A stretch of 64,000 nucleotides of DNA, from contig NZ_JAIQZB010000017.1 in NCBI RefSeq assembly GCF_020164555.1, forward strand, positions 35,983 to 99,982. The letters are read 5' to 3'. A program made the position numbers and the translations under genes. The notes under the pieces were generated by a model that was not told where the DNA came from, did no database searches, and saw only the letters and a program-made list of their open reading frames with translations. Of this stretch, positions 49,142-63,873 are shown piece by piece (the first letter of the stretch is position 1; each line of letters opens with the position of its first letter). This stretch comes from Salegentibacter lacus. GTDB taxonomy: Bacteria > Bacteroidota > Bacteroidia > Flavobacteriales > Flavobacteriaceae.

Positions 49142-49196
49142 CTGAAGTAAAGGCATAATAGATATAAATGTAATACTGCATTTATATGTACGTTGT
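49142..49196 (+). other. Candidate attI (array start)
   Basis: Between the integrase remnant and the first cassette. It holds a perfect inverted repeat ATATAAATG-taatactg-CATTTATAT (49,162-49,187) and ends in TACGTTG, the same ACG|TT junction seen at every cassette boundary. This is where the primary integration site of an integron would lie. Confidence 0.5.
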
Positions 49197-49664
49197 ATGC
49201 AATTTCTTGTCGCGAAGGGTCATCTTTTGAAAGTCCTGGGCTGATTTTAAATAGGAGTACAGGTAATGGAAAGCAAAGGATATGACCATAGGAAGTATCC
49301 CCAAGTATGTTGCGATGAGATCGTGGAGAGTTTTTTAACTATCCAAACGTTATCACGTTACCAATACTTGAGGTTAAGGTAGTTTAAATTTGAGGTATAA
49401 TCAATAGGGGAAACTCCCTTAATTTTTCCTTTACCTGGACGTATAATTGATTGACGCCCACCCCTTATTCCACGGATGTTTAGATCTACTTCTAAACACA
49501 ATGTAAACGGGGCACGGATCTCAAAAGAAGGATTTTAAATGTTTCCGCTCCAAGCAACAGTTCCTTTTATACTTATCTTAGAATGCAGATAACCAAAAAA
49601 GCAGACAACACCATCTAACTGCAATAGCCGCGAAAATGCGACTACAACAGTTAGATCTACGTTG
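49190..49664 (+). repeat. 475-bp direct repeat, copy 1 (first cassette)
   Basis: Identical to 56214-56688 except for one base (C here, A there, in TTTCCGcTCCAAG). It equals one cassette (49193-49661) plus its boundary bases. No full gene is seen. One minus-strand frame fragment near its start (LIATYLGILPMVISFAFHYL) looks like the membrane end of a sensor kinase; a 37-codon plus-strand frame (MESKGYDHRKYPQ...) follows an AGGAG-like stretch. Probably decayed cargo. Confidence 0.85.
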
Positions 49665-49667
49665 TGC
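49601..49667 (+). repeat. Short attC-like site of cassette 1
   Basis: GCAGACAAC (R'') pairs with the cassette start GTTGTATGC with one mismatch; inner arms ATCTAACTG and CAGTTAGAT match perfectly; it ends in CTACGTTG. Total about 65 bp, a classical attC length, unlike the long sites that follow. Confidence 0.72.
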
Positions 49668-49705
49668 ATAATATCTCACTGGATACAAAAACCTATAATT
49701 GACCT

Positions 49706-50224
49706 ATGAAACATTTTGCTTTTTTATTAATTATGCTTGTCTTTATTAGTTGCAAGGAATCAAAAAAAACTAATGATGCTATTGTTTTCCACAGTATGTC
49801 AACGGACAAAAACTTCGAATATTCTGTAAATTTTCCTGACACCGTCTATGTGAATGAACCCAATGACGGTGAATTTCAATACAAAAGCCCACTCGACACT
49901 ATAACCAAAAACTTTTCTGATCCACGACAGAATAGATATGTGGTTTTTAGGACTCTTCCAGATAATACGTATGATTTCCACAGGGATTTTTTTAATGATT
50001 CCCTCCAAGAATATCGGATAGGTGCAACTGATAATAGATCTATTCCATTCTATGATTTATCTTTTAAGACAACAGGAGTTTTTGAGATAAACGGATTAAT
50101 CAATGATCTTGTACTTATAGAACCGCAAACAGAAAATAACCAGGATAAAACTAAGATTAGATTGATAGAGGAAGATTTCCCAGTATCTTTTAAAGTTGTT
50201 GTAATTGATAGAATTAGCAATTAA
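49706..50224 (+). CDS. Cassette 2: lipoprotein of unknown function
   Basis: A 172-residue lipoprotein (VFISC, Cys 16). The mature part has alternating short strands (YSVNFPDTVYVNEPNDGEFQ, RYVVFRTLPDNTYDF) and ends with FKVVVIDRISN, suggesting a small beta domain. I recognise no family. Only gene in its cassette; no promoter seen. Confidence 0.7.
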   Translation: MKHFAFLLIMLVFISCKESKKTNDAIVFHSMSTDKNFEYSVNFPDTVYVNEPNDGEFQYKSPLDTITKNFSDPRQNRYVVFRTLPDNTYDFHRDFFNDSLQEYRIGATDNRSIPFYDLSFKTTGVFEINGLINDLVLIEPQTENNQDKTKIRLIEEDFPVSFKVVVIDRISN

Positions 50225-50259
50225 TAAAATGCGGATTTAACCTCGTAGATAATTAAAAC

Positions 50260-50391
50260 TATGCACAACAACATATAAAAACAATGCTTAAATCAGTCTC
50301 GAATCGAAACTCGTTGCCCGCTTGCTCAGCGGATTGTCCTGCGGACAATCACGCCCGCCCGCTCGCACAGTTTTTATACGAGACGTTGGCA
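50260..50391 (+). repeat. Long attC-like site of cassette 2
   Basis: R'' TATGCACAAC is the exact complement of this cassette's start GTTGTGCATA. Inner arms ATAAAAAC and GTTTTTAT; central hairpin GATTGTCC-TGC-GGACAATC. Confidence 0.85.
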
Positions 50392-50412
50392 AACATTTAA
50401 AAAAATAATTCA

Positions 50413-51360
50413 ATGAAAAGAATATTTATCATTCTTACAATATTAATTTTTACAGGATGCAGTAAAGATCCTTTAGAGGATTATGATATAAATAATAAAG
50501 AAAGTTCCAATTCGATTTTTAAACCTTATTTAAATCAGTTTAAAAAAGAAGCTGAAAAACGTGGTTATGATTATACAGACTATGAAATAGAATTTTATTT
50601 GGCTGATATAGACGGTAAACCCGCAGGAGGTGTAGCTAATTTTTCTAATAACGAAATTTTTATAGACAGAGATAATTGGTCTGCTATTCATCCAACTCGA
50701 AAAGAAGAACTAATTTTTCACGAACTAGGGCATTCAATCCTAAAAAGGAAACATACAAATAAGCAGACAGAAAATGAAGGGTGTTTAAGTTATATGATGG
50801 AAAATTCTTACGAATGCCAAAAAAACTCTTATTCTCTTTTATGGAGAGAGTATTATTTTGATGAATTATTTGACGAAAGCACATCTCTTCCGCTTTGGTA
50901 TAGGAAAAATAACAAGTATAACTTCAACTACGAAAATAAAGAGCTTTTAGTTCAAGAATTAGATAATGATAATAGATCTTTTCAATTTGATATAGATACA
51001 GATACCATTTCGAATTTTGTTTTGGAAGTAACATTCAAAAACTGGCAATCAGCTTCAGAAAGAGATCCATTCAGGAACACTAAGGTCAATTTGAACGGAA
51101 TTAATTATGAAAGTAACCCTAATCGCAATTCGATTCATATTTCTGACAATGAATATTCAAAACGATATTGGTCGAAATGGGATTACAATTATGAAGAAGA
51201 TATCAAGTTAACTGTAAGAAGATACGATGGAATTTATTCTTTCTTTATAGATGAAAAGTATATACATGCTACAGATATTGAATACTTCGAGACTCAAAGC
51301 ATAAATATTAGTTTTAGTCAGGGAGTAAATAAAGATATAGTATTATTCAAATTTGACTAA
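50413..51360 (+). CDS. Cassette 3: HExxH metalloprotease-like lipoprotein
   Basis: A 315-residue lipoprotein (FTGC, Cys 16). Residues about 35-150 contain LIFHELGHSILKRKH, a zinc HExxHxxxxx motif, after NEIFIDRDNW, which fits a small metallopeptidase domain. Residues about 165-315 are a beta-rich domain like a concanavalin/LamG fold (NFVLEVTFKNW, YSFFIDEKYIHA), perhaps for binding. Only gene in its cassette. Substrate unknown; as an envelope lipoprotein it may act on outside proteins. Confidence 0.75.
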   Translation: MKRIFIILTILIFTGCSKDPLEDYDINNKESSNSIFKPYLNQFKKEAEKRGYDYTDYEIEFYLADIDGKPAGGVANFSNNEIFIDRDNWSAIHPTRKEELIFHELGHSILKRKHTNKQTENEGCLSYMMENSYECQKNSYSLLWREYYFDELFDESTSLPLWYRKNNKYNFNYENKELLVQELDNDNRSFQFDIDTDTISNFVLEVTFKNWQSASERDPFRNTKVNLNGINYESNPNRNSIHISDNEYSKRYWSKWDYNYEEDIKLTVRRYDGIYSFFIDEKYIHATDIEYFETQSINISFSQGVNKDIVLFKFD

Positions 51361-51365
51361 TAAAC

Positions 51366-51498
51366 GTTTGCCAACAGTATATAAAAACAATGCTCAAACC
51401 TGTCTCAAATCAAAACTCCTTGCTCGCTTCCAACGCTTGATTGTCCGCAGGACAATCAAGCTCGCCAGTTCGCACAGTTTTTATACGAGACGTTGGCA
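51366..51498 (+). repeat. Long attC-like site of cassette 3
   Basis: R'' GTTTGCCAAC is the exact complement of the cassette start GTTGGCAAAC. The central hairpin has a changed loop, GATTGTCC-GCA-GGACAATC, with the stem kept. Confidence 0.85.
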
Positions 51499-51539
51499 AC
51501 AAGTAGAAAAATCAATGGTAAACTTAAGTTGATTGTAGT

Positions 51540-51773
51540 ATGAATTTTATCGCATCTAGCGCACTTTATTATCCTATTGGTTGGCTTTATTTATGGGTAA
51601 GGTATCGGAAAAAGGAAAAGGTTAAAAAGGTCCTTAAAGAAGAATATGACGGAAGATATTACAATGCAGGCGCACAATTAATTATCGGCAGTTTCGGAAT
51701 TATTTTAATCGGTCTTTTAAGTGTCTTTCTGATTCTGGTAATTGGACGGATCATATTTGATATTTTCACCTGA
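51540..51773 (+). CDS. Cassette 4: small membrane protein
   Basis: A 77-residue protein with two hydrophobic segments: about 5-22 (ALYYPIGWLYLWV) and 51-72 (FGIILIGLLSVFLILVIG), joined by a basic stretch rich in Lys and Arg. Unknown family. Sole gene of a 418-bp cassette. Confidence 0.6.
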   Translation: MNFIASSALYYPIGWLYLWVRYRKKEKVKKVLKEEYDGRYYNAGAQLIIGSFGIILIGLLSVFLILVIGRIIFDIFT

Positions 51774-51785
51774 CTCATAAAACCA

Positions 51786-51916
51786 GTTGCCAACATTATA
51801 TAAAAACAATGCTAAAACCTGTCTCAAATCGAAACATCGTGCTCGCTTGCTCAGCGGATTGTCCTGCGGACAATCACGCACGCCAGCTCGCACAGTTTTT
51901 ATACGAGACGTTGGCA
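51786..51916 (+). repeat. Long attC-like site of cassette 4
   Basis: R'' GTTGCCAAC is the complement of cassette start GTTGGCAAC; standard long-site core with GATTGTCC-TGC-GGACAATC. Confidence 0.85.
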
Positions 51917-51972
51917 ACAAGCTGAGCTAACTCTAATATCAATATGTATATTTTTTAGATATTTAAAATTAA

Positions 51973-52602
51973 ATGAAAAAAGCTTCTTGGGTTATAATTG
52001 GACTGCTATCGATAATTATCGGCTTATATCCCGTTATATATTTGTTTATTGACAGGAAGTTTGGATTACTAGGCACAAAATCAGTAGAACTTTTAAGTAA
52101 CAATGTATGGAACATTATGTTTTACGCTCATATTTTTCTTGGAGGGCTTGCTTTGTTAATTGGATGGCTACAATTCAGCAAAAAATTGAGAAATAAATAT
52201 ATGACGCTACATAGAAGAATAGGGGAAACATACATTATTTCTGTTCTTATAAGTGGAATTTGCGGATTGTATATAGCCTTTTTTTCGACAGGAGGTGCCA
52301 CAAGTGTTTTTGGCTTTGGTTCGCTTGCACTGATTTGGTTAATTTCAACTTTTCTCGCTTATAAAAGTATAAGAAATGGTAAGATTCGGCTACACGAGAA
52401 TTTAATGATTTATAGTTATGCTGCCTGTTTTGCGGCAGTTACTTTAAGGATTTGGCTTCCCCTTCTGACAATAGTATTAAACGATTTTATTTTTGCATAC
52501 CGTATTGTTGCGTGGTTATGTTGGGTGCCAAACTTATTTGTAGCTTATCTAATTATTAAAAATAAAAGCCAGTTGCCAACAATATATAAAAACAATGCTT
52601 AA
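51973..52602 (+). CDS. Cassette 5: DUF2306-like membrane protein
   Basis: A 209-residue protein with about six helices. The pattern YAHIFLGGLALLIGWLQF, KYMTLHRRIGETYIISVL (conserved His-Arg pair) and RLHENLMIYSYAACFAAVTLR matches DUF2306, a possible haem-linked or redox membrane family. The last ten codons (QLPTIYKNNA) come from the recombination site itself, so insertion has changed its C-terminus. Sole gene of its cassette. Confidence 0.78.
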   Translation: MKKASWVIIGLLSIIIGLYPVIYLFIDRKFGLLGTKSVELLSNNVWNIMFYAHIFLGGLALLIGWLQFSKKLRNKYMTLHRRIGETYIISVLISGICGLYIAFFSTGGATSVFGFGSLALIWLISTFLAYKSIRNGKIRLHENLMIYSYAACFAAVTLRIWLPLLTIVLNDFIFAYRIVAWLCWVPNLFVAYLIIKNKSQLPTIYKNNA

Positions 52603-52702
52603 ACCTGTCTCAATTCAAAACTTTTTGCTCGCTAGCATTGCGAATTGTCCTGAGGACAATCACGCTCGCCCGCTCGCACAGTTTTTATACGAGACGTTGC
52701 CA
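52572..52702 (+). repeat. Long attC-like site of cassette 5
   Basis: R'' GTTGCCAAC complements the cassette start GTTGGCAAC. Central hairpin loop is TGA. The cassette gene's stop codon lies inside the site (52600-52602). Confidence 0.85.
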
Positions 52703-52735
52703 GTAATTTAAGAAAATCGTCCTAAAAAATATAAC

Positions 52736-53428
52736 ATGAAAGAACTCGAAATATCTACTATCGGAAAATCTATAAAATACTTTATGGTTATTTTCCTTTG
52801 CTTAAATCTTACATCCTGTTATTATGGATTAAATGATGATGATGACCCGTCAGTAATTGGTCAGAACTCATATAAAGGAGTTTTAATTGATTTAAATGGT
52901 AATCCTCTTAAAAATATGACAATCGTTCTGAGAAGCAACTTTGATCAACATATTGCTGAATTTATTACCGATGAAAATGGTGTATTTGAGGGGCAAGGAA
53001 ATATTTACAACACAGGTCTTAAGGTCGGTATTAAAGAAGAAGGTAACAAATATTTGACAGAATACATATTTGATTATACCGAGTATCCTATCGATGAAAC
53101 AATAGAATTTCCGCCGCTTATTAACACACCAACTTCTTCAGTTTCGATTAAAATTATGAATAATTCTGGGTTAGATTATAGTGTAGATTATCAATACATA
53201 ATCGGTATTTGTCAAAAGTACTTCGAAGATAACCTTGAAGTCGACTCTTTATGTTATGAAGAATATCATGATACGATTAATTTTGATAGCGATAATTCAA
53301 AAAGTTTTAGTATTGGAGCTGTAAGGGGCACTACAATTTCTCTTACAGTTAGTAATTCCGACAATTCTTTAACTCAAACAATTACAGTTGACGAGCAAAA
53401 TCAAGTAGAAACAATCGTTTTTGAATAA
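52736..53428 (+). CDS. Cassette 6: lipoprotein with regulatory-type beta domain
   Basis: A 230-residue protein with a hydrophobic N-terminus and a Cys at about 28 (NLTSCYYG), probably a lipoprotein. The segment about 40-110 (YKGVLIDLNGNPLKNMTIVL ... FITDENGVFEGQGNIY) is a carboxypeptidase-regulatory-like beta-sandwich. The rest is a second beta domain with two Cys (CQKYF, CYEEY). Unknown role. Sole gene of its cassette. Confidence 0.7.
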   Translation: MKELEISTIGKSIKYFMVIFLCLNLTSCYYGLNDDDDPSVIGQNSYKGVLIDLNGNPLKNMTIVLRSNFDQHIAEFITDENGVFEGQGNIYNTGLKVGIKEEGNKYLTEYIFDYTEYPIDETIEFPPLINTPTSSVSIKIMNNSGLDYSVDYQYIIGICQKYFEDNLEVDSLCYEEYHDTINFDSDNSKSFSIGAVRGTTISLTVSNSDNSLTQTITVDEQNQVETIVFE

Positions 53429-53461
53429 AACTTTGAAACCTGAATCACAACAATAGAAAAC

Positions 53462-53593
53462 TACTGGCAACAAAATATAAAAACAATGCTTAAATCAGTC
53501 TTGAATCGAAGCTCCCTGCTCGCTAGCTTAGCGGATTGTCCTGCGGACAATCACGCTCGCCCGCGCGCACAGTTTTTATACGAGACGTTGCCA
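53462..53593 (+). repeat. Long attC-like site of cassette 6
   Basis: R'' TACTGGCAAC is the exact complement of cassette start GTTGCCAGTA, a pairing different from neighbouring sites while the core stays the same. Confidence 0.87.
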
Positions 53594-53598
53594 CACAT

Positions 53599-54339
53599 AT
53601 GAGAGAAAAACTTGCGATCATAGTTCTAGCGTTAATAATCACTTCAATCTTTCAAAATTGTAAAGAAGATAAAAAGTTGTCTGTAACTGAATTTGAACAA
53701 TCTGTATTTTATGAAATATTCCCTTCAATAATCGATTCTATTCATTCCGATATGAGATTGATTCCACCACCGCCACCGCCGCCAAACGTTTTAAAAGAAA
53801 AAGGTTATGATATAAATAATAAATCGGACCCTTACAACAAAGCATATGAAGAATGGTTAAGGTCTGATGATTATAAACAGACAATGAAAACCTGGGAAAA
53901 GGTAAGAGATTCTATTGTGAAAGATACAACTTCTTATTTTTTAGTAGTCCAAGATTCAATTTCTTCTATTGAAAAAGATACTAAACCTCAATTTGCGGAA
54001 CATTTTAAAGAATACAATATCGCACCAGACACATTAGACCACAGAAAAAATTTCGCTCTAGAATTAAATAAACTTAAAACAAATCATAAAAAAGTCAAAT
54101 TCAAATATCGGACTGAATTTCCTGAAGGACGAGAATTCTGGAGAAATAAATATAAATATAATGTGGTTGCATACGTCGGATTTTCTAGAATATTATTTGA
54201 TAAAACAAGAACTTTTGGAGTTCTTGATGGTAGTTATTCTATGGCACCTTTGAATGGTTCTGGTTACCGCATTTTCATTAAAAAAACCAAAGACGGTAAG
54301 TGGATTATAGATGAAATTATTGGAACTTGGATATCATAA
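53599..54339 (+). CDS. Cassette 7: secreted or lipid-anchored protein, unknown
   Basis: A 246-residue protein. ATG 53599 is right; the longer frame from 53536 is translated recombination site. The N-terminus (MREKLAIIVLALIITSIF, then QNCKED) looks like a lipoprotein signal. A run of seven Pro near 58 is followed by a helical, Asp/Lys-rich middle and a C-terminal beta part (VVAYVGFSRILFDKTRTFGV, KDGKWIIDEIIGTW) resembling a nuclear-transport-factor-like fold. No family recognised. Confidence 0.7.
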   Translation: MREKLAIIVLALIITSIFQNCKEDKKLSVTEFEQSVFYEIFPSIIDSIHSDMRLIPPPPPPPNVLKEKGYDINNKSDPYNKAYEEWLRSDDYKQTMKTWEKVRDSIVKDTTSYFLVVQDSISSIEKDTKPQFAEHFKEYNIAPDTLDHRKNFALELNKLKTNHKKVKFKYRTEFPEGREFWRNKYKYNVVAYVGFSRILFDKTRTFGVLDGSYSMAPLNGSGYRIFIKKTKDGKWIIDEIIGTWIS

Positions 54340-54344
54340 ATTAC

Positions 54345-54476
54345 GTGTGGCAACAATGTATAAAAACAATGCTTAAGCCTGTCTCAATTCAAAACTCCGT
54401 GCTCGCTAGCCCAGCGGATTGTCCTTCGGACAATCACGCTCGTCCGCTCGCACTGTTTTTATACGGGACGTTAGCG
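54345..54476 (+). repeat. Long attC-like site of cassette 7
   Basis: R'' GTGTGGCAAC is the exact complement of cassette start GTTGCCACAC. Central hairpin loop is TTC, right arm ATACGGGACG. Confidence 0.87.
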
Positions 54477-54492
54477 CACATTTGAAAACAAA

Positions 54493-55635
54493 ATGAAAAA
54501 AGTAATTGCATTTGCAGATGAATTTGGAAATAATTCCTTTGAGTTTAACACTCAGGGAAGCCATTTCATTATTGCCAGTGTTATAATGAACCAAGATGAA
54601 TTAGACGAAATACAAATTCAACTTGAAGAAATTCGAAAAAAATTCTTTCAAACTGGAGAAATAAAGTCCAGTAAAGTTAAAAACAATCATAACCGAAGAA
54701 TCTTAATCTTAAGGGAGCTTAAAAAGGTGAATTTTTCTGTTTATGCTGTGGTCATCGACAAAAGAAAACTTTACGGTGAAGGTTTTAAATATAAACAATC
54801 TTTCTACAAATATCTTAATGGAATTTTATACAAAGAACTTTATCGGACTTTTCCTCAACTTGAATTAAAAGTGGACGAACACGGAGGAAACGATTTTATG
54901 AGAAGTTTCAAAAAATACGTTGAGAAAAATCATATTAGAAACCTATTTGCCGGTTCTGATTTTCATATTCAAAAAAGCCATAATGATCTGGGAGTACAAT
55001 TAGCGGATTTTATGGCTGGCACTTTAGGTTACATTTTCGATGAACTAAAGAAATCCTATAAATCAAGCGAATTTGCGGACTTGATAAATGAAAAACTAAT
55101 TAGTTTAAACCAATTTCCAAAAGCCTACAAAATTGAAAAATTCAATGAAAAGGATACCTTCAATGAATATGATGAAACCATTGCAACCTTAAGTTTAAAC
55201 AGAGTATTCGATTTTATTGATAAAGCCACAGGAAATACACAAGATAATCGTGACAGAATTAATTTTCTAAAACTTTTACTTCTATATCATCAATCAAACC
55301 ACCCAAGAAAATATACCACATCAAATGAATTCGTAAAACACTTGAGTGTAAATAGACAAAAACAACTAAGTAAAGAGCAATTCAGTTCTAAGGTAATAGG
55401 ATATTTGAGAGATAAAGGAGTTTTGATTGCAAGCAGTAGAGACGGTTATAAGATACCAACTTCAGCAACCGATATGAAAAAATTTATAAATCACGGCAAT
55501 AGTATAATTTTGCCTGTGCTTCGCCGAATTGAGGAATGCCGTAGTGCAATTTTACTTGCGACGACAAATGAATACGATATTTTAGATGACCCTGCTTATG
55601 GCCAATTAAGGGAACTAATAGAAAACGTGCGCTAA
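54493..55635 (+). CDS. Cassette 8: DUF3800 protein
   Basis: A 380-residue protein. Residues 1-200 match DUF3800, an RNase H-like domain, with the acidic residues in IAFADEFGNN, KVDEHGGND and GVQLADFMAGTLG. Residues about 255-380 are a helical domain with a winged-helix-like part (KVIGYLRDKGVLIASSRDGY). DUF3800 proteins are often seen in defence islands and mobile DNA; activity is unproven. The stop codon is inside R'' of the site that follows. Confidence 0.8.
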   Translation: MKKVIAFADEFGNNSFEFNTQGSHFIIASVIMNQDELDEIQIQLEEIRKKFFQTGEIKSSKVKNNHNRRILILRELKKVNFSVYAVVIDKRKLYGEGFKYKQSFYKYLNGILYKELYRTFPQLELKVDEHGGNDFMRSFKKYVEKNHIRNLFAGSDFHIQKSHNDLGVQLADFMAGTLGYIFDELKKSYKSSEFADLINEKLISLNQFPKAYKIEKFNEKDTFNEYDETIATLSLNRVFDFIDKATGNTQDNRDRINFLKLLLLYHQSNHPRKYTTSNEFVKHLSVNRQKQLSKEQFSSKVIGYLRDKGVLIASSRDGYKIPTSATDMKKFINHGNSIILPVLRRIEECRSAILLATTNEYDILDDPAYGQLRELIENVR

Positions 55636-55758
55636 CAACATATAAAAACAATGCTTAAATCGGTCTTTAATCGAAACATTGTGCTCACTTGCTCAGCGGA
55701 TTGTCCTGCGGACAATCACGCGCGCCAGCTCGCACAGTTTTTATACGAGACGTTGGCA
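55627..55758 (+). repeat. Long attC-like site of cassette 8
   Basis: R'' GTGCGCTAAC is the exact complement of cassette start GTTAGCGCAC. The gene's stop codon (55633-55635) is part of R''. Confidence 0.87.
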
Positions 55759-55792
55759 ACAAGCTCAAACATTAATTAACTAACCATTAAGA

Positions 55793-56083
55793 ATGAAAAA
55801 TTTCTTTGAAAAATACACGGAAAAGCCGTCTTCAACCTTTAGCCGACTTTTTATTACCTTTCTTTTCGGATTTTTACCCTTTGCGATCATTTTTGGTTTG
55901 CTGACCATTGCAGGAATTGAACCTGTTACTTTCAATGGAGAGGATTATTATGGATTTGCGGGATTATTAGTGTTACTGATCGCTACCCCAATTACCGCAC
56001 TGGTTTTTGCGATTTTTATCTATCTATACTTATTGATCGGGTTTTTGATGTTGAGTGGATTTAAAAAACTTTTGGTACGGTAA
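55793..56083 (+). CDS. Cassette 9: small membrane protein
   Basis: A 96-residue protein with two or three helices (about 18-42, 52-88) and a basic end (GFKKLLVR). No family recognised. Sole gene of a 464-bp cassette. Confidence 0.6.
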   Translation: MKNFFEKYTEKPSSTFSRLFITFLFGFLPFAIIFGLLTIAGIEPVTFNGEDYYGFAGLLVLLIATPITALVFAIFIYLYLLIGFLMLSGFKKLLVR

Positions 56084-56090
56084 AAAGCCA

Positions 56091-56222
56091 GTTGCCAACA
56101 AAATATAAAAACAATGCTTTAACCTGTCTCAAATCCAAAGTCTGAGCTCGTTTGCAACGCCTGATTGTCCTGCGGACAATCACGCACGCCAGCTCGCACA
56201 GTTTTTATACGAGACGTTGTAT
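56091..56222 (+). repeat. Long attC-like site of cassette 9
   Basis: R'' GTTGCCAAC complements cassette start GTTGGCAAC; core as in the others, with a CCTGATTGTCC variant on the left arm. Confidence 0.85.
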
Positions 56223-56688: not shown

Positions 56689-56691
56689 GCA
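56625..56691 (+). repeat. Short attC-like site of cassette 10
   Basis: Same as the site at 49601-49667: GCAGACAAC, ATCTAACTG/CAGTTAGAT arms, CTACGTTG end. Confidence 0.72.
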
Positions 56692-56711
56692 AATATTAAA
56701 AAACAAAACTT

Positions 56712-57200: not shown

Positions 57201-57207
57201 AAAGAAC

Positions 57208-57339
57208 ATTTGCCAACAGTATATAAAAACAATGCTCAAACCAGCCTCAAATCGAAACTCCCTGCTTGTTTGCTTTGCGGATTGTCCTGCGGACAATCAC
57301 GCACGCCCACTCGCACAGTTTTTATACGGGACGTTAGCT
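57208..57339 (+). repeat. Long attC-like site of cassette 11
   Basis: R'' ATTTGCCAAC is the exact complement of cassette start GTTGGCAAAT. Confidence 0.87.
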
Positions 57340-57375
57340 ACAATTTGCCGATAAATCCTGAAACCTTTAGATCTA

Positions 57376-57406
57376 TTTGTCAAAACGAAAAACATAACTA
57401 TATTTG
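57376..57406 (+). promoter_or_regulatory. Promoter inside cassette 12
   Basis: TTTG at 57376-57379, exactly 19 bp, TATATTTG at 57399-57406: a perfect consensus, 34 bp before the PadR-like gene. It is the only cassette promoter of this quality I found. Confidence 0.82.
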
Positions 57407-57433
57407 TATTATTCAAGTTGTATAATACAAATA
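57401..57433. promoter_or_regulatory. Likely PadR-type operator
   Basis: Perfect 12-bp inverted repeat, TATTTGTATTAT (57401-57412) and ATAATACAAATA (57422-57433), 9 bp apart. It overlaps the -7 element and the expected start of transcription, as an autorepressor site would. Inference: bound by the PadR-like protein encoded next to it. Confidence 0.72.
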
Positions 57434-57440
57434 GAAAATA

Positions 57441-57815
57441 ATGAAAAATGAGGACAATTTAAATGAACTATTGCTTTCTTGGGAAAACACATATAAAAAA
57501 GGTCAATTGACACTTTGGATTTTTATGGCACTTCAAGAAAGCAGAAAATATGTTGATGAAATTAAAAGTTTTATTGAAAAGAAATCTAACGGAACAATAA
57601 GTTGCGAAGAACAAAGCTTATATCGGGCGTTAAGAAAATATGAACATATTAATGTTTTAACTTTTGAGTTAAAAGAAGGAAATAAAGGTCCTGAAAGGAA
57701 ATATTATTCTTTGACAAATTTAGGACAAGAACTCTTCAAGCAGTTTGTGAATAGAAACATTAAACTTTTCTATTCAGAAGAAATTAAAAATATTCTAAAA
57801 TTAAACGACCAATGA
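57441..57815 (+). CDS. Cassette 12: PadR-family transcription regulator
   Basis: A 124-residue PadR-like winged-helix protein: KGQLTLWIFMALQESRKYVDE (helix 1-2), LYRALRKYEHINVLTFEL (recognition helix and start of wing), GPERKYYSLTNLGQELF (wing and final helix). The sense/response couple is unknown. It overlaps the next gene by 4 bp (ATGA), so both form a small operon, with an operator over their promoter. The usual partner is a small membrane protein, as here. Confidence 0.87.
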   Translation: MKNEDNLNELLLSWENTYKKGQLTLWIFMALQESRKYVDEIKSFIEKKSNGTISCEEQSLYRALRKYEHINVLTFELKEGNKGPERKYYSLTNLGQELFKQFVNRNIKLFYSEEIKNILKLNDQ

Positions 57816-58231
57816 AAACCATCACACTTTATTTAATGAGATTTGCATTAACTGTAACTATTCTAACTATATTATTTAGATATTTTTTGAGTTACGGTAT
57901 AGAAAATCTATCAGGAATTATAATTACTTTATCCGCAGGAATTTATGGGATTTTAACGTTTGTTGCTGGTTGGTATTTTGGACGAAAGGATGGAGAATAT
58001 TTACCAATATTTGATGTCGGATTTAGATTTCACCTAACAACATTTTTAATTCATAATGGGATTTCATTATTGTGGATTGGATTTGGATTTGGCTCAAAAA
58101 GTGAAAATCTGAATGCTCCTATTATGGGTGCTATTATTTGGAGTGTTTTTCTATTAATACATTTCATCTTTTACCTTTGGGCAAGAAGAAATTCCATTCA
58201 TAATTTGAATAAAGAAGACATATTTGAATAA
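57812..58231 (+). CDS. Cassette 12: four-helix membrane protein
   Basis: A 139-residue protein with four helices (about 8-27, 33-52, 72-90, 105-128). A Gly/Trp pair and GRKDGEYLPIFDVGFRFH lie in the cytosolic loop. It starts inside the PadR gene's stop, so its expression is tied to that regulator. Unknown family; probably the regulated output of the pair. Confidence 0.72.
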   Translation: MKTITLYLMRFALTVTILTILFRYFLSYGIENLSGIIITLSAGIYGILTFVAGWYFGRKDGEYLPIFDVGFRFHLTTFLIHNGISLLWIGFGFGSKSENLNAPIMGAIIWSVFLLIHFIFYLWARRNSIHNLNKEDIFE

Positions 58232-58239
58232 TGAAAACA

Positions 58240-58369
58240 GTAGCTAACAGCATATAAAAACAATGCTTAAATTTTGCTCAATCCATATTCCGTGTTCGTT
58301 TGCTTAGGTGATTGTCCTACGGACAATCACGCTCGCCCGCTCGCACAGTTTTTATACGAGACGTTGTAA
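58240..58369 (+). repeat. Long attC-like site of cassette 12
   Basis: R'' GTAGCTAAC complements cassette start GTTAGCTAC. Central hairpin GTGATTGTCC-TAC-GGACAATCAC has longer arms than in other sites, with both sides changed together. Confidence 0.87.
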
Positions 58370-58384
58370 ATAATTGTTAAAGAT

Positions 58385-59488
58385 TTGAGTAATAATAGAT
58401 ACTATGTTTACGGACTTATAGATCCTCGGGATAACCAAATATTTTATATTGGAAAAGGAACTGGTAAAAGATATTCTTCTCATTTAAAGAAAAATAGACT
58501 TGATTTTAATTCAGGTAAAATCGATCAAATAATAGAAATTCAAAATTCCGGATTAGAAGTTAAAATAGAAATCTTATTTCAAAACCTTGATGAAGAAACG
58601 GCTTACGATTTAGAGAAAGTAATAATTTACAAATTAGGACGTAAAGTTTTTTCGGAAGGAACATTAACTAATCTTATTCCAGGTGGAAGATGGAAAACAG
58701 GCGATCCAATTTTTTATGATAACTCTTATACACCTGCTTTCGATTCAAATAGATTAGGTCTTTTTGGAGAAAATGAATTTCTAAGAATTAAAACAAAATC
58801 AACTTTTGATTATTTAAATACGAATAAAGAAAGGCAAATAGTTTATAGGTATAACTGGGATGGTAGTTTTGATAAAGAAAAAACTCTAAATGAGCTTTTT
58901 ATAGAAGGTGTTAGAGAGGTGGAAATGAATATACTTAAGTTTTTAAGAATTGAAAACTTGCCAATTTATGGTAGAGGAATTCATTCCAAATTCTTTTATG
59001 AGAATATTTATATTTCAGAAAAAATTCCGACCTGTGATTATGATATAATTGATCAGGATTTTCATAAAGAGTTTGATTTAAAATTTGGTATGGAAGAAGA
59101 TTTCACAATTCATAGTTACGAAAATGATATCTTAAGACTGGAGTTATGTAAAAACAAAACTACGATTGATTACCAATCTTATTATATAACGGGGCAGAAA
59201 AAATCCTTCCGAAGAACAAAATATGGCAGACCCTACGAATTAGCTTTAGAGTGGTTTGAAAATGGGAATTTAAGCGTTAAAGAAGAATTAATAGATGGTT
59301 ATTCAGAATATATAAGGACCACATATTACGAAAGTGGTGAAAAATATATTCGCATAAGTCGAGGAAAAGGAAAGAAAGAGTATGATAGATGGTTCAAAAA
59401 TGGAAAGAAAGAAGTAGAATTTATAGATAACGGTTACAACTATTATAATGAGAGCGGAGAATTGGTCAAAATTATAAAGCCGGAATAA
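58385..59488 (+). CDS. Cassette 13: GIY-YIG nuclease-like protein with YwqK-type tail
   Basis: A 367-residue protein starting at TTG 58385, because the domain needs RYYVYGLIDPRDNQ, and no ATG fits. Residues about 5-105 are a LEM-3-like GIY-YIG domain: YVYGLID, FYIGKGTGKR, DLEKVIIYKLG (metal Glu), NLIPGG. Residues about 265-367 hold YwqK/MORN-like units (ALEWFENGNLSVKEEL, DRWFKNGKKEVEFID, YNESGELVKII). Such a fusion could be a toxin or defence effector; that is inference. Confidence 0.8.
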   Translation: MSNNRYYVYGLIDPRDNQIFYIGKGTGKRYSSHLKKNRLDFNSGKIDQIIEIQNSGLEVKIEILFQNLDEETAYDLEKVIIYKLGRKVFSEGTLTNLIPGGRWKTGDPIFYDNSYTPAFDSNRLGLFGENEFLRIKTKSTFDYLNTNKERQIVYRYNWDGSFDKEKTLNELFIEGVREVEMNILKFLRIENLPIYGRGIHSKFFYENIYISEKIPTCDYDIIDQDFHKEFDLKFGMEEDFTIHSYENDILRLELCKNKTTIDYQSYYITGQKKSFRRTKYGRPYELALEWFENGNLSVKEELIDGYSEYIRTTYYESGEKYIRISRGKGKKEYDRWFKNGKKEVEFIDNGYNYYNESGELVKIIKPE

Positions 59489-59493
59489 ACAAC

Positions 59494-59625
59494 TATTTAC
59501 AACAATATATAAAAACAATGCTCAAACCTGTCTCAATTCAAAACTCCGTGCTCGCTTGCTCAGCGGATTGTCCTGAGGACAATCACGCTCGCAAGCTCGC
59601 ACAGTTTTTATACGAGACGTTAGGC
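59494..59625 (+). repeat. Long attC-like site of cassette 13
   Basis: R'' TATTTACAAC is the exact complement of cassette start GTTGTAAATA. Hairpin loop is TGA. Confidence 0.87.
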
Positions 59626-59644
59626 ACAATAAAAATTTACTCTT

Positions 59645-60604
59645 TTGGAAGATAATATTAGAAAACTGGAAAAGGAATTACAAGAGGTGTTCTTTATTAG
59701 GTTTAATAATAAAGATTTGGAAGAAAAACTTAAGGTTTACCATAATTCAAAATTAGATGAATTACAAGAAGTTTATTTAGCTTTTAAAGATAACATCAAT
59801 TCTATAGTTTCGACTGCAACTATCCCAGATATAATGGCGAGAGGTAAAGCAAATCTCGAAATCTTTAATAGTATTCGGACCCAGGAGTCTATTCTTTCAA
59901 TGCGAGATGACATTGATACGGAAGATCAAAAAAAAGATGAAAAAGCTGCCGCAAATAAATTACATAAAAAAGTTCACGAGAGGTTTTTGGCTGAACGCGA
60001 GACTCTGAAGGGTAAAAATCAATTTCGGCTAATTTCGGCGATTTTTCTAAAAGATTTATCTGACTCTGAAACTTTTGAAGTTGCATCAAAAAATCTTCTG
60101 AACCAATGCGCTTTATCCACCTGGGCAGCCTTTGAAATTTTTTGCCGGGACTGTTTTATTGTACTTTTAAATAAGAACAGCCAATTAGTGGAAAACCTCT
60201 CCGCAAAAGCAGAACTAAAGCAAAAGTTTAACTTGAAAAATATACCTGTACAAAAATTGATAGAGTTTGATTTTAATCTGTCTAATAGTATGGGGACTAT
60301 TTTAATTGAAAATTTTGAGTTCAGTAACCTCCGTACAATTAAAACGATTTATAAAACCATATTTACCAGCGACGATTTAAGAGAAAAGTTAGATGATGAT
60401 AAACTATGGTCGCTTTTTCAAAGAAGAAATTTATTAGCACATAAAAGCGGAATTGTTGACACCCAATATCTAAGATCAACTAATGAATCTTTACCTCTAA
60501 AAAGTAAAATTTGGACTAGACCAAACGAATTGATGGAATATTTAGAATTAGTAATAGAGACTTCAAAGGAAATCAGAATGGAAATAGAAAATTACTGTGC
60601 CTAA
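59645..60604 (+). CDS. Cassette 14: HEPN-like protein
   Basis: A 319-residue helical protein starting at TTG 59645 (no ATG fits). Residues about 1-135 are coiled helices. Residues about 150-319 look like a HEPN domain: STWAAFEIFCRDCFIVLLN, then RRNLLAHKSGIVD, which carries the Rx4H catalytic motif of HEPN RNases. This points to a toxin or anti-phage RNase, but the match is by motif only. The stop codon lies in R'' of the next site. Confidence 0.72.
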   Translation: MEDNIRKLEKELQEVFFIRFNNKDLEEKLKVYHNSKLDELQEVYLAFKDNINSIVSTATIPDIMARGKANLEIFNSIRTQESILSMRDDIDTEDQKKDEKAAANKLHKKVHERFLAERETLKGKNQFRLISAIFLKDLSDSETFEVASKNLLNQCALSTWAAFEIFCRDCFIVLLNKNSQLVENLSAKAELKQKFNLKNIPVQKLIEFDFNLSNSMGTILIENFEFSNLRTIKTIYKTIFTSDDLREKLDDDKLWSLFQRRNLLAHKSGIVDTQYLRSTNESLPLKSKIWTRPNELMEYLELVIETSKEIRMEIENYCA

Positions 60605-60727
60605 CAATATATAAAAACAATGCTAAAACCAGTCTTGAATCGAAATTCCGTGCTCGCTTGCTCAGCGGATTGTCCTGCGGACAATCACGCACGCCAGCTC
60701 GCACAGTTTTTATACGGGACGTTGTAA
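60596..60727 (+). repeat. Long attC-like site of cassette 14
   Basis: R'' TGTGCCTAAC is the exact complement of cassette start GTTAGGCACA; the gene's stop is inside it. Confidence 0.87.
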
Positions 60728-60767
60728 CCAATGGCTCCAAAAAAAATACTAATCAAAAAGATCAAAT

Positions 60768-61358
60768 TTGAAATTTGCCAAAAATTTATATTATATAAAA
60801 AGTGTAGTTAGGGTAATTTCTGTAATTATCCTGTTGATTAGCGGAAATAATATCATAGCACAAAATGATGAACAAAAAATTCCTATTGTATACTTAGAAT
60901 CTTTTCTAGGTGGATACACTGGAGAGAATGGCGGTTTATTATGGGGTGGAGTATTGAATTATCAGTTTAGTAAAAATCTTCTGAGTTTAAGATATTCAAA
61001 AATAAATGACATAAGTGTTAGTTCAGTAGTGCTTATTCCTGTTTCTAATACAAATGCATTTGCTGATGAAATAGCAGTACTCTATGGGAGAAGAAAGATT
61101 AATGACGGTCATTCTTTGAGTATATCGCTCGGACCTTCATACACTATTTACGCATCTAATAGTTTAAATGATCTAGAAAGAGAAAGAATCCGGGCTTTCG
61201 GCGCAGCATTTGAAACAAATATTAAATGGTTTAAAAAACAAAAAAGGAATCCTTTTGGTTTCAGTTATGGTATAAAATTATCAGGAAATGTTTCAAAAAA
61301 TTACTATTTCGGTTTATCTTTTATGTTGGGGATAGGTTGGCATAAATTATACAATTAA
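60768..61358 (+). CDS. Cassette 15: outer-membrane barrel-like protein
   Basis: A 196-residue protein from TTG 60768, which gives a proper signal peptide (ending NIIAQN). The body has alternating amphipathic strands (GGLLWGGVLNYQFSKNLLSL, SLSISLGPSYTIYA, YYFGLSFMLGIGWHKL), as in small beta barrels. An ATG at 60731 only opens a short dead frame. Sole gene of its cassette. Confidence 0.68.
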   Translation: MKFAKNLYYIKSVVRVISVIILLISGNNIIAQNDEQKIPIVYLESFLGGYTGENGGLLWGGVLNYQFSKNLLSLRYSKINDISVSSVVLIPVSNTNAFADEIAVLYGRRKINDGHSLSISLGPSYTIYASNSLNDLERERIRAFGAAFETNIKWFKKQKRNPFGFSYGIKLSGNVSKNYYFGLSFMLGIGWHKLYN

Positions 61359-61384
61359 ACACACATACTCGAACGTGTCGCCAC

Positions 61385-61516
61385 TGTTTACAACATTATA
61401 TAAAAACAATGCTTAGACCAGTCTTAAATCGCAACTCTGTGCTCGCTTGTTTAGCGGATTGTCCTGCGGACAATCACGCTCGCCGGCTCGCACAGTTTTT
61501 ATACGAGACGTTGGGC
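61385..61516 (+). repeat. Long attC-like site of cassette 15
   Basis: R'' TGTTTACAAC complements cassette start GTTGTAACCA at 9 of 10 positions. Confidence 0.85.
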
Positions 61517-61590
61517 ACAATGCAATCATTTAGAAAAGATAAAATTATTAATTAAATAAATTCGTATTCTAAAAACTCCTATTTACAAAT

Positions 61591-62133
61591 ATGAAAATAA
61601 ACACTTTATTTTTCTTATTGGCACTTGCTTTTTCGATGCCCACTAACGCACAAATAACCAAAAACAATTGGCTGGTTGGCGGGGATGTTGCATTTTCTTA
61701 TTCTAAAACCAAACCTGAATCTACAGTTGATTCCCAATCATTCACCATAAACTTGACTCCAAATGTGGGTTACTTTTTTTTGGATAAATTAGCTTTAGGT
61801 ACGAGAGCTGAATATACTCTTTCTCGTTATAAAAGCGACTCAGGAACCTCCAAGTTTGACCGCTTTCTGATATCCCCTTTTGCAAGATATTATTTACTGA
61901 ATATAGACAAAATGGTTAATCCATTTTTAGAAAGTTCTTATCGATTTAGCCTTATAAATGAGAATAATTCTAGAGAATTTTCCGCTAAGGGTGGTGTTGC
62001 AATATTTTTAAACAATAGTGTGGCTTTTGAGGCATCTCTAATTTATTTTAATTCAACATCAAACAACACTTACGTAGGGAACCACACCTTGCTGTTGGGG
62101 TTTGGAATCCAGGTGCATTTAGAAAAATTATAA
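61591..62133 (+). CDS. Cassette 16: outer-membrane beta-barrel protein
   Basis: A 180-residue protein with a signal peptide (ending TNAQI) and eight-strand barrel pattern: NWLVGGDVAFSYSKT, NLTPNVGYFFLDKLALGTRA, FDRFLISPFARYYL, and a final HTLLLGFGIQVHLEKL. It resembles the OmpX/outer-membrane barrel family common in Bacteroidota. Sole gene of its cassette; its start is 81 bp from the boundary. Confidence 0.78.
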   Translation: MKINTLFFLLALAFSMPTNAQITKNNWLVGGDVAFSYSKTKPESTVDSQSFTINLTPNVGYFFLDKLALGTRAEYTLSRYKSDSGTSKFDRFLISPFARYYLLNIDKMVNPFLESSYRFSLINENNSREFSAKGGVAIFLNNSVAFEASLIYFNSTSNNTYVGNHTLLLGFGIQVHLEKL

Positions 62134-62244
62134 TAGGCTTCATAATGACACATACGCCGATTAGTGGCAGATTATTGGATATTCTAGTATTCGGACATTA
62201 ATAATGGTTAAAATAATCGAAATTCAACAAGCGTAGTAAGCACA

Positions 62245-62375
62245 GTGCCCAACAGTGTATAAAAACAATGCTTAATTTGTTCTTGAATCGAAACTCTGTG
62301 ATCGCTTGCTCAGCGGATTGTCCTGCGGACAATCACGCACGCCAGCTCGCACTGTTTTTATACGGGACGTTGTGA
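62245..62375 (+). repeat. Long attC-like site of cassette 16
   Basis: R'' GTGCCCAAC complements cassette start GTTGGGCAC. Right arm ATACGGGACG. Confidence 0.87.
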
Positions 62376-62392
62376 ATAATGCATAGAAAAAT

Positions 62393-63235
62393 ATGAACAA
62401 AATATATAAAATTGTGTTTCTAGCATTGTTAGGATCAGTCTTTTTTTCTTTCCAGATAGAAAAGACAAATACCCTGACCGATTCTCAATTTTATATAGAT
62501 TCGATTTTCAGCAAAAGTTTGGGAGAATATAGAAAACATACTGTTTATCTCCCCAAAGGGTTTAATAAGCAACATAATTATCCAGTAATTTATGCAACCG
62601 ACGGATCTACTTCATTAGAAAACAACTTCTATAAAATTACTTTGGATTCCCTAATCGACAATAAGATTATAGAGCCCACAATTTATATCGCCAGTCATTC
62701 GAATCGTAAAATTGCTTATAGCACTACAAATGCTCTTGATGGGGAGAAAATTTTAATTGATTATAGAAATCTGGAATATGTAGAGACTTTCCAATTTGGA
62801 ACATCTGACCCAGATCTTTCCAATAGATTTAAGAACCATTTATTTTATTTTAAAGATGAATTGATTCCTCAAGTTGAAAAGGAATTGAATCAAGGCCTTC
62901 AAAAAAGTGATAGATTTTTCTATGGATTTTCTAATGGAGCCGGATTTGGTGTGAATCTACTCAACAAATATCCCGATGTAATAGGAACCTATATTTGCTA
63001 TTCTACATTAGGTTCTAATGTCAAAGGAAATAAATGGCACAGTGAAGAAAAATATCCAGATTTATATTTACAATATGGAGATGAAGAAAGCTTTGTTTAC
63101 AAACGGGAAGCAGAGGATCTTGTAAGAAATTATAAAAACTCAAACTCTTTTGTCGAAGTGGAAATATTCAAGGGAGGACATAATTACAAGAAATGGAATG
63201 AAGGTTTTATAAGAACGATTAGTAAATTGTTATAG
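62393..63235 (+). CDS. Cassette 17: esterase-like alpha/beta hydrolase
   Basis: A 280-residue protein with a signal peptide (about 1-22). The alpha/beta-hydrolase fold of the esterase D/Fes type is seen in HTVYLPKGFNKQHNYPVIYA, the nucleophile elbow FYGFSNGAGFG (catalytic Ser), an acid in LYLQYGDEESF and His in FKGGHNYKKW. All three catalytic residues seem present. It would hydrolyse an ester in the periplasm or outside; substrate unknown. Sole gene of its cassette. Confidence 0.82.
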   Translation: MNKIYKIVFLALLGSVFFSFQIEKTNTLTDSQFYIDSIFSKSLGEYRKHTVYLPKGFNKQHNYPVIYATDGSTSLENNFYKITLDSLIDNKIIEPTIYIASHSNRKIAYSTTNALDGEKILIDYRNLEYVETFQFGTSDPDLSNRFKNHLFYFKDELIPQVEKELNQGLQKSDRFFYGFSNGAGFGVNLLNKYPDVIGTYICYSTLGSNVKGNKWHSEEKYPDLYLQYGDEESFVYKREAEDLVRNYKNSNSFVEVEIFKGGHNYKKWNEGFIRTISKLL

Positions 63236-63250
63236 GCGGCCTAAAAGCAC

Positions 63251-63382
63251 TATTCACAACAACATATAAAAACAATGCTCAAATCAGTCTTGAATCCCAA
63301 ATCCTTGCTCGCTTGCTTAGCGGATTGTCCTGCGGACAATCACGCTCGCCAGCTCGCACAGTTTTTATACGAGACGTTGGCG
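63251..63382 (+). repeat. Long attC-like site of cassette 17
   Basis: R'' TATTCACAAC is the exact complement of cassette start GTTGTGAATA. Confidence 0.87.
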
Positions 63383-63499
63383 GTAATTTTCAGCAATTCG
63401 TTAGCACAAAACGACATTTCAGAAAAACAAATTGCAGATAGTGTGAATTTTTTTGGAAACTTTATTTATCTAACCAACCATACAAATTACAAAAAATGA
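63377..63499 (+). pseudogene. Start-less open frame at the head of cassette 18
   Basis: From the boundary a frame reads AVIFSNSLAQNDISEKQ and on to LTNHTNYKK and a stop that overlaps the next ATG. The part SNSLAQ looks like the end of a signal peptide, yet no start codon is left inside the cassette. Probably a gene cut at its 5' end when the cassette formed. Confidence 0.45.
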
Positions 63500-63873
63500 A
63501 ATTTTTTAAAGTTTTAGGAAAAACTCTCTTAGTACTATTGGTATTAAACCTCCTAATCATTGCATTCTTTTGGATCAAAAATGAAAACTATTTAGAATCT
63601 ACGAATGAGAAAAACTTATCGTATTTAGGAAATAATAAAAAAATTATATTTGAAAAAGAGGAAAATCAGTATAATTTAAATGGATTTTTTGACCAGGATT
63701 TTTACGATTCAGATGTTTTCTTATTGGGAGAAAATCACGGGTTTGAAGAAGTTCAAAAGATAGATTTTGAATTATTTAAACATCTTAACCAGAAAATCGG
63801 ATTGAAATATTACATCGCAGAAATGGATAGTATTAGATCAAAAAGACTAAATCAATATTTAAATGATTCAATT
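63496..63873 (+). pseudogene. Cassette 18: esterase/Tiki-like membrane-anchored protein, cut by an IS
   Basis: The frame starts MKFFKVLGKTLLVLLVLNL (membrane anchor), then VFLLGENHGFEEVQKIDFE and YYIAEMDSIRSKRLNQYLN, which match the erythromycin-esterase-like/ChaN group with its GENHG motif. After residue 126 the sequence becomes the end of an IS66-type element (from about 63874), so the gene is interrupted. The frame that runs on to the window end is IS DNA, not protein. Confidence 0.75.

What the first reader, a model, noticed from the sequence alone, without database searches (positions are those of the whole stretch)
49193..63873. Large integron-like cassette array in a flavobacterium
Seventeen full units and part of another, all genes on one strand, each ending in a structured 65-130 bp site and joined at ACG|TT. 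In every unit the first 7-10 bases pair with the 5' box of that unit's own site (examples: GTTGGCAAAC/GTTTGCCAAC, GTTGCCAGTA/TACTGGCAAC, GTTGCCACAC/GTGTGGCAAC, GTTAGCGCAC/GTGCGCTAAC, GTTAGGCACA/TGTGCCTAAC). The pairing differs from unit to unit while the core is constant, which only makes sense if each unit was once a circle with a joined site. Integrons are well known in Proteobacteria but scarcely in Bacteroidota, and these sites look unlike the known VCR or class 1 types.
Basis: partly seen in the sequence, partly recalled or inferred. Interest (0 to 1): 0.95.

Follow-up and report, generated by a model that had tools for sequence, protein, structure and literature searches.

The report
Flavobacterial integron with unusual recombinase
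This flavobacterium carries a row of 17 complete gene cassettes that are likely captured and shuffled as in integrons, but by a predicted recombinase lacking an insert thought essential for integron function, and matching cassette sites occur in most related genomes searched.

Summary
From 49192 to the contig end the window has 17 complete head-to-tail units plus a cut one, joined at ACG|TT; each unit's first bases pair with its own 5' box (0 of 100,000 permutations reach the sum). It is an integron-type array. New here: (1) it starts at an attI-like palindrome behind the decayed end of a tyrosine recombinase gene; an intact copy on another contig has nearly the same attI and another first cassette. 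(2) Flavobacteriaceae relatives repeat this plan: 74 of 90 have the inverted repeat plus a GTT head right behind the gene; 46 of 52 first heads have their own box. (3) Across Salegentibacter species homology ends at the attI crossover. (4) The recombinase lacks the ~42-residue IntI insert (32 of 32; present in 20 of 20 IntI). (5) The bottom strand folds more stably than the top in 42 of 42 sites, and the stems carry conserved A.C non-pairs (T.G on the bottom). (6) A site model hits 339 of 397 genomes of the family. Eight full-text searches listed no description. Recombination itself is untested.

The parts
46887..48092 (+). separate tyrosine recombinase (Arm-DNA-bind_5, Phage_int_SAM_5, Phage_integrase), not taken for the array's recombinase
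   Evidence: Pfam; intact relatives of the system have another recombinase at attI
48971..49138 (+). decayed 3' end of the array's recombinase gene (residues 318-374 of the intact copy on contig C54; 75% identical, one residue missing)
   Evidence: tblastn; intact copy L009:1204-2328 minus strand
49162..49194 (+). attI-like site: ATATAAATG / CATTTATAT inverted repeat, GTAC, then crossover G|TT
   Evidence: same site but for a base behind the intact gene on C54 and in three other Salegentibacter species
49192..49660 (+). cassette 1, 469 bp, no ATG ORF of 50 aa, short site of another type
   Evidence: differs by one base from cassette 10
49661..50384 (+). cassette 2, ORF 49706-50224; attC-like site 50267-50387
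50385..51491 (+). cassette 3, ORF 50413-51360 (weak metallopeptidase-like match below cut-off); site 51373-51494
51492..51909 (+). cassette 4, ORF 51540-51773; site 51792-51912
51910..52695 (+). cassette 5, ORF 51973-52602, DUF2306; site 52578-52698
52696..53586 (+). cassette 6, ORF 52736-53428; site 53469-53589
53587..54469 (+). cassette 7, ORF 53602-54339; site 54352-54472
54470..55751 (+). cassette 8, ORF 54493-55635, DUF3800, PADLOC candidate PDC-M04A; site 55634-55754
55752..56215 (+). cassette 9, ORF 55793-56083; site 56097-56218
56216..56684 (+). cassette 10, second copy of the 469-bp unit
56685..57332 (+). cassette 11, ORF 56712-57200; site 57215-57335
57333..58362 (+). cassette 12, two ORFs 57441-57815 (PadR) and 57812-58231; site 58246-58365
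58363..59618 (+). cassette 13, ORF 58385-59488 (from TTG), GIY-YIG, PADLOC PD-T4-3; site 59501-59621
59619..60720 (+). cassette 14, ORF 59645-60604 (from TTG); site 60603-60723
60721..61509 (+). cassette 15, ORF 60768-61358 (from TTG); site 61392-61512
61510..62368 (+). cassette 16, ORF 61591-62133, outer membrane beta-barrel; site 62251-62371
62369..63375 (+). cassette 17, ORF 62393-63235, esterase; site 63258-63378
63376..64000 (+). incomplete cassette 18, cut by the contig end

Best explanation
This is the cassette array of an integron-type system of Flavobacteriaceae in which a tyrosine recombinase encoded just in front of the array, without the IntI-specific insert, likely inserts circular gene cassettes at an attI-like site and would excise or reorder them through hairpin attC-like sites. 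Shown: the array, the attI-like site, the recombinase family in front of it in relatives, exact cassette boundaries, and almost the same attI carrying different first cassettes in related species. Inferred: that this recombinase does the work; that it uses the bottom strand of attC folded as a hairpin; that strand choice comes from conserved positions which are A.C non-pairs on the top strand and T.G wobbles on the bottom, instead of the extrahelical bases of IntI sites. In this genome the copy next to the window's array is decayed; the intact copy on contig C54 would act in trans.
For: Own-box pairing in 17 of 17 window units at 8 or more of 10 bases. Intact recombinase L009:1204-2328 with nearly the same attI and its own first cassette and site. 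90 distinct relatives: 74 have an inverted repeat ending 2-8 bases before a GTT head (shuffles 46 of 1800); of 52 with at least 1.5 kb downstream, 46 first heads have their own 9-base box within 3.5 kb, against 106 of 3766 for heads of other loci. Palindrome centre lies 16-18 bases before GTT in 63 of 74. Contiguous arrays: 9 cassettes in L014, 8 in L013. S. salarius L012 and own C54 are 93.5% identical over 4790 bp and diverge at the attI crossover; L011, L015 and the window do so within about 12 bases of it. The 469-bp unit sits once at attI and once mid-array, one base different, and a 78% relative lies second in L011. L-stem: in 26 of 27 cleanly delimited first cassettes (control 100 of 1350; 21 other loci dropped for want of a following unit); covariation 79 double-change cells against 23.8 in shuffles. 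Bottom strand more stable in 42 of 42 sites. Site model and recombinase profile co-occur: recombinase in 35 of 37 site-positive genomes, 4 of 20 site-negative (Fisher p 1e-8).
Against: No recombination, circle or strand preference was measured. The recombinase next to this array is decayed. Wider relatives found with the family profile are not all at arrays: only 5 of 23 loci (about 1.5 kb or less after the stop) showed a head with its own box, and several have no attI-like sequence. 14 of the 20 site-negative genomes are under 2 Mb, so part of the co-occurrence may be genome size. Part of the strand asymmetry is base composition: shuffled sites average -1.3 kcal/mol against -3.4 observed, and 6 of 42 sites do not beat their own shuffle mean. 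Six of 52 first heads lack an own box, and 16 of 90 loci fail the repeat test. One covariation measure, further pair types, is weak: 21 against 18.4, reached by 48 of 500 shuffles.
Confidence: 0.87

Rival explanations
1. The array is a cluster of canonical attC sites (CALIN) assembled by an ordinary IntI elsewhere, and the neighbouring recombinase is unrelated.
For: CALIN elements, attC clusters without a neighbouring IntI, are known (passages of PMC9024848). Canonical IntI exists in 84 of 296 Bacteroidota genomes.
Against: No match at E 1e-60 in the own genome, and none of the 85 matching genomes is of this family. The non-IntI recombinase sits in front of a palindrome and GTT head in 74 of 90 loci. 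The site model hits only 6 of 25 canonical-IntI genomes, 1-2 times each, against 339 of 397 Flavobacteriaceae, and nothing in 11 canonical-IntI loci with short flanks.
Confidence: 0.05
2. A housekeeping Xer enzyme of the cell, not the linked recombinase, moves the cassettes, and the linked gene is a passenger.
For: Xer enzymes share the fold, and Xer-type matches appear in most genomes.
Against: Three genomes with Xer-type matches only (G004, G023, G077) have no site by the model. The attI palindrome lies immediately behind the linked gene in many genera with changing sequence but fixed spacing.
Confidence: 0.05
3. A fixed tandem repeat family: the sites are dispersed repeats such as terminators or repeat hairpins behind genes, and the array arose by duplication.
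For: Sites of the window are very alike (88% mean column identity) and the model hits most genomes of the family. Some units recur with the same length and head (L024, L203).
Against: Head and own box covary unit by unit in the window and in first cassettes of other genomes; cassette contents are unrelated; homology between species ends at attI; the sites of each fetched stretch lie on one strand.
Confidence: 0.03

Closest known systems
Integrons with IntI integrases (class 1, Vibrio superintegron)
   Same: attI next to a tyrosine recombinase gene; head-to-tail one-strand cassettes; R and L boxes in attC; crossover at G|TT; cassette start pairs with the cassette's own 5' box; bottom-strand hairpin favoured; large arrays and ORF-less cassettes (features of the known kind partly recalled, partly from passages)
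   Different: recombinase lacks the ~42-residue insert and scores under the IntI cut-off; attI is a palindrome behind the gene's 3' end; gene and cassettes run the same way; head is not GTTRRRY; A.C non-pairs where IntI sites have extrahelical bases
Treponema integrons
   Same: integrase and cassettes on the same strand (PMC3607928, passages)
   Different: that paper calls the integrase IntI; here it is not IntI
Archaeal XerA recombinases (NF040815, PDB 5hxy and 4a8e)
   Same: best family match, over its cut-off (227.8 vs 220), and highest structural Z (23.6, rmsd 13.6, 265 aligned)
   Different: the extra ~100-residue N-terminal part is outside all these matches; XerA is known for chromosome dimer resolution (recalled), not cassettes
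Insert-less members of the 'integron-like' subgroup of tyrosine recombinases (PMC8138268)
   Different: the passages seen link them to no attI or cassette array and call the insert essential for integron function
IS91-associated tyrosine recombinase (Bradyrhizobium septentrionale plasmid, L171)
   Same: 40% identical catalytic part, no insert
   Different: next to an IS91 transposase; no site-model hit in the 6.8-kb stretch

Membership tests
Integron (by function) | attC-type site at the end of each cassette, own head pairing with own 5' box | tested here: met
   17 of 17 units, 8 or more of 10 bases; 0 of 100,000 permutations
Integron (by function) | attI as primary insertion site next to the recombinase gene | tested here: met
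   74 of 90 loci; homology between species ends at the crossover
Integron (by function) | cassette content differs between close relatives | tested here: met
   five different first cassette heads behind almost one attI: window, C54, L011, L012, L015; species, not strains, compared
Integron (by function) | recombinase catalyses attI x attC and attC x attC | not testable with these tools
   needs an assay
Integron (by function) | bottom strand of attC is the substrate | tested here: inconclusive
   folding only: bottom more stable in 42 of 42, partly composition
IntI integron integrase | IntI-specific additional domain between patch III and the HxLRH motif | tested here: not met
   72-73 residues from GKG to LRHSF in 32 of 32 family members, 114 in 20 of 20 IntI (two of the 20 Bacteroidota IntI loci were dropped for frame length)
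IntI integron integrase | NCBIfam TIGR02249 over cut-off 265 bits | tested here: not met
   212.1 bits
IntI integron integrase | falls in the IntI clade | tested here: not met
   20 IntI form one side of a branch (SH-aLRT 100) without the family (quick trees, long branches)
IntI integron integrase | catalytic R, K, H, R, H, Y | tested here: met
   R234, K259, H323, R326, H349, Y358 invariant in 31 rows; shared by tyrosine recombinases at large
Canonical attC | L'/L'' inverted repeat inside R'/R'' | tested here: met
   26 of 27 first cassettes; covariation
Canonical attC | extrahelical bases in the L stem | tested here: inconclusive
   conserved A.C opposed positions (29 of 29 and 19 of 29), read as mismatches, not bulges
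Canonical attC | R' box GTTRRRY (consensus recalled) | tested here: not met
   2 of 17 window heads fit (heads)
Typical integron layout | integrase gene transcribed opposite to cassettes | tested here: not met
   gene, attI and cassettes on one strand in the loci; layout as in Treponema
CALIN | attC cluster without linked intact integrase | tested here: met
   for the window's array alone: only residues 318-374 are recognisable

The most novel reading that the evidence does not exclude
Flavobacteriaceae have their own class of integrons, nearly universal in the family, run by a recombinase lineage outside IntI. It works without the IntI insert and without extrahelical bases: strand choice is built into the hairpin as T.G wobbles on the bottom strand that are A.C mismatches on the top, one in the R arm at cassette base 11 and two in the L arm. 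This would be a second solution to single-strand cassette recombination, hidden so far because searches demand the IntI insert.
Probability: 0.55. Interest if true: 0.95.

Novelty: new variant of a known kind. Interest (0 to 1): 0.9.

Why it matters
The IntI insert is held to be needed for cassette recombination (PMC8138268 passage; Messier and Roy as cited in PMC9668308), and at least one published survey kept only candidates that carry it (PMC2426708 passage). A recombinase without it, sitting in front of attI and cassette arrays across a large family, would show that integrons have at least two recombinase lineages and that a big reservoir of mobile genes in Flavobacteriaceae has gone uncounted. 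It makes a question testable: what does the IntI insert do, if a relative works without it? Two of nine window cassette proteins scanned match candidate anti-phage models, so the reservoir may include defence genes.

Tried and rejected
Canonical IntI in the own genome: searched; TIGR02249 gave matches below its cut-off only and none at E 1e-60. The neighbouring recombinase 46887-48092 was considered as the array's enzyme and set aside. Rfam found only a cobalamin riboswitch, ARAGORN no tRNA. Phage records gave only partial relatives of the recombinase (49 records, none covering 80%). RNAalifold found no consensus pair on the 29-site alignment, so model R1 had no structure and was not used; R2 used the stem that I read from the sites, so its pair counts lean towards that stem. 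The structure search left residues 1-100 of the recombinase without a match; a weak or missing match is no evidence of a new fold. A pattern search of 397 genomes had a wrong gap length and missed even the own genome; it says nothing. The own-box test on wider relatives was weak: 5 of 23. IntegronFinder and HattCI models were not at hand and not run. Rows dropped: 13 distant loci (L044-L047, L049-L057) from the attI test; 15 weak places and two short frames (G048, G086) not fetched; 11 of 107 loci without a recombinase frame. Literature: search listings and passages; no paper was read whole; preprints and most subscription papers are not held, so an unseen description is possible.
Full report
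Observation. The window is contig C38:35983-99982 of a 4.05-Mb draft genome in 128 contigs; the window ends with the contig. The closest recombinase relatives are from Salegentibacter (91-94% identical), so the organism is Salegentibacter or near it. The 17 units, their ACG|TT joints and the pairing of each head with its own box are confirmed. In one search three rows used a wrong AAC; one search repeats the test: runs of 9-10 bases in 14 units, 7 in one, 5 in two (those two with 8 of 10 matching), sum 152, highest of 100,000 permutations 114.

Boundary of the array. At 48971-49138 lies the decayed end of a tyrosine recombinase gene (residues 318-374, 75% identical). Behind it comes ATATAAATG-8 bases-CATTTATAT-GTAC-G|TT. 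On contig C54 an intact gene (L009:1204-2328, minus strand, 374 aa) is followed by the same site but for one base, then by another cassette with its own attC-like site.

Relatives. One scan of named genomes gave 47 loci, of which 13 distant ones were left out of the attI test. The N-terminal 108 residues, searched in 397 genomes of the same family, matched in 82 at E 1e-6, in 64 of 237 genera. I fetched 73 of the 90 matching places outside the own genome, leaving out the 15 weakest and two with short frames. Of 107 named and unnamed loci 96 gave a recombinase frame; after removing repeats and short ends 90 were tested. 74 have an inverted repeat with arms of 7-14 ending 2-8 bases before GTT[AG] (46 of 1800 shuffles). 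Of 52 with at least 1.5 kb behind, 46 first heads have their own 9-base box within 3.5 kb (106 of 3766 for foreign heads). The 16 without the repeat are printed; by eye many of them show a less perfect repeat. The repeat's sequence changes from genus to genus while its centre stays 16-18 bases from GTT in 63 of 74.

Movement. S. salarius L012 and C54 are 93.5% identical over 4790 bp through flank, gene and attI and stop matching at the crossover; S. tibetensis L011, S. agarivorans L015 and the window stop within about 12 bases of it. The five first cassette heads differ. The 469-bp unit lies at attI and again at 56216 with one base different, and a 78% relative lies second in L011. L129 has one 851-bp cassette twice, 99.8% identical; L024 has three successive units of 451 bp with the same head. 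Units found by head, box and L repeat together: 132 in 911 kb against 9 in the same sequences reversed; some of the 132 overlap.

Sites. Twenty-nine sites (24 of the 27 clean foreign ones, without L120, L139 and L144, and 5 of the 15 of the window) align with AAC, three bases, L'', a variable part, L', a few bases, GTT. The L stem covaries: 79 cells with changes on both sides against 23.8 in shuffles, score 0.458 against 0.110, and the slid versions fall to 0.036-0.113; the number of further pair types is weak evidence, 21 against 18.4. The stem was read by me from these sites, which favours it. Inside it columns 18/116 are A opposite C in 29 of 29 and columns 13/123 in 19 of 29. The head stem shows the same: base 11 pairs in 0 of 24 own units, 0 of 63 and 3 of 97 units elsewhere, although bases 12 and 13 pair again in most (23 and 23 of 24; 56 and 54 of 63; 81 and 89 of 97); the opposed letters are A and C in 23 of 24, 50 of 63 and 80 of 97. 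On the bottom strand these become T.G wobbles. Folded as DNA the bottom strand is the more stable in 42 of 42 own-joined sites (mean -3.4 kcal/mol); shuffles give -1.3, 36 of 42 beat their own shuffle mean, and the stems alone favour the bottom in 41 of 42. In IntI systems strand choice depends on extrahelical bases (PMC2727003 passages). I infer that the wobbles take that part here; this is untested.

Spread. Model R2 hits 339 of 397 genomes of the family at E 1e-5 (rough E-values, stricter filters, at most 8 candidates scored per genome). Of twelve 20-kb stretches chosen from its hits 11 hold five or more sites, each stretch on one strand, and L199 has one; no hit in the E. coli, IntI1, IntI2 and Bradyrhizobium loci of the same call, one in Persicobacter behind its recombinase. 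Many of these genomes have a more distant recombinase (214-418 bits with profile A1). Of 13 such loci fetched, 12 could be measured and lack the insert (71-73 residues), and in 9 a GTT head within 250 bases behind the gene has its own box, mostly behind an ATATAAC-like attI (no shuffle control there). Of 37 site-positive genomes 35 have a recombinase at E 1e-48 or better, of 20 site-negative 4. The 13 positives were picked by hand (9 for strong sites, 2 with the recombinase already known, 2 of the same genus), the 24 are the next handles in order, and the 20 negatives are those printed out of 58. Small genomes tend to lack both, which weakens this. Outside the family, of 25 Bacteroidota genomes with canonical IntI 6 have one or two hits. 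The own genome has at least 40 sites: 15 in the window and 25 in stretches of C36, C44, C52, C54 and C62.

Judgement. Works like an integron: very likely. Is an IntI integron: no, defining features were tested and not met. I file it as a new variant of integron. I found no description in eight full-text searches, but the library lacks preprints and most subscription papers. Known before: intI in the Bacteroidetes/Chlorobi group (PMC2426708), one complete integron in Salinibacter ruber (PMC9024848), Bacteroidota in a list of phyla with integrons (PMC8618304).

Noticed in passing
window 15912-16174 +: Cobalamin riboswitch, 89 bits, in front of the ORF 16209-18050.
   Followed up: no
window 58385-59488 and 54493-55635: Cassette genes matching PADLOC PD-T4-3 (GIY-YIG) and PDC-M04A (DUF3800): cassettes may carry anti-phage genes.
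   Followed up: no
window 49192-49660 and 56216-56684: 469-bp cassette without an ATG ORF of 50 aa, in two copies, with a site of another type; one TAnnTTTG-like motif on the + strand. Could be a promoter or RNA cassette.
   Followed up: partly
window 63906-64000: The last 95 bases match S. agarivorans L015:3802-3896 at 83%, near its recombinase: perhaps the end of an insertion element in the last cassette, where the assembly broke.
   Followed up: no
L098, L099, L100, L102, L106, L107: The stretch behind the recombinase holds two similar palindromes or parts of them in a row (by eye), as if attI had been duplicated.
   Followed up: no
L016 (Salinimicrobium marinum), after the recombinase stop: attI-like site with a large inverted duplication in it.
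   Followed up: no
84 of 296 Bacteroidota genomes: Canonical IntI over the cut-off is frequent in other families of GTDB Bacteroidota; none of the 85 matching genomes is of this family.
   Followed up: partly
L170 (Persicobacter sp. JZB09 plasmid, Cytophagales) 8001-9119 and 14202-14323: Relative of the recombinase (45%) with an attI-like sequence and one attC-model hit downstream, on a plasmid.
   Followed up: partly
L203: A 640-bp unit with the same head occurs four times in one array.
   Followed up: no
hits of about 190 bases in L195, L196, L197, L200, L203, L206: A longer class of sites, about 170-190 bases, beside the usual 124-base class.
   Followed up: no
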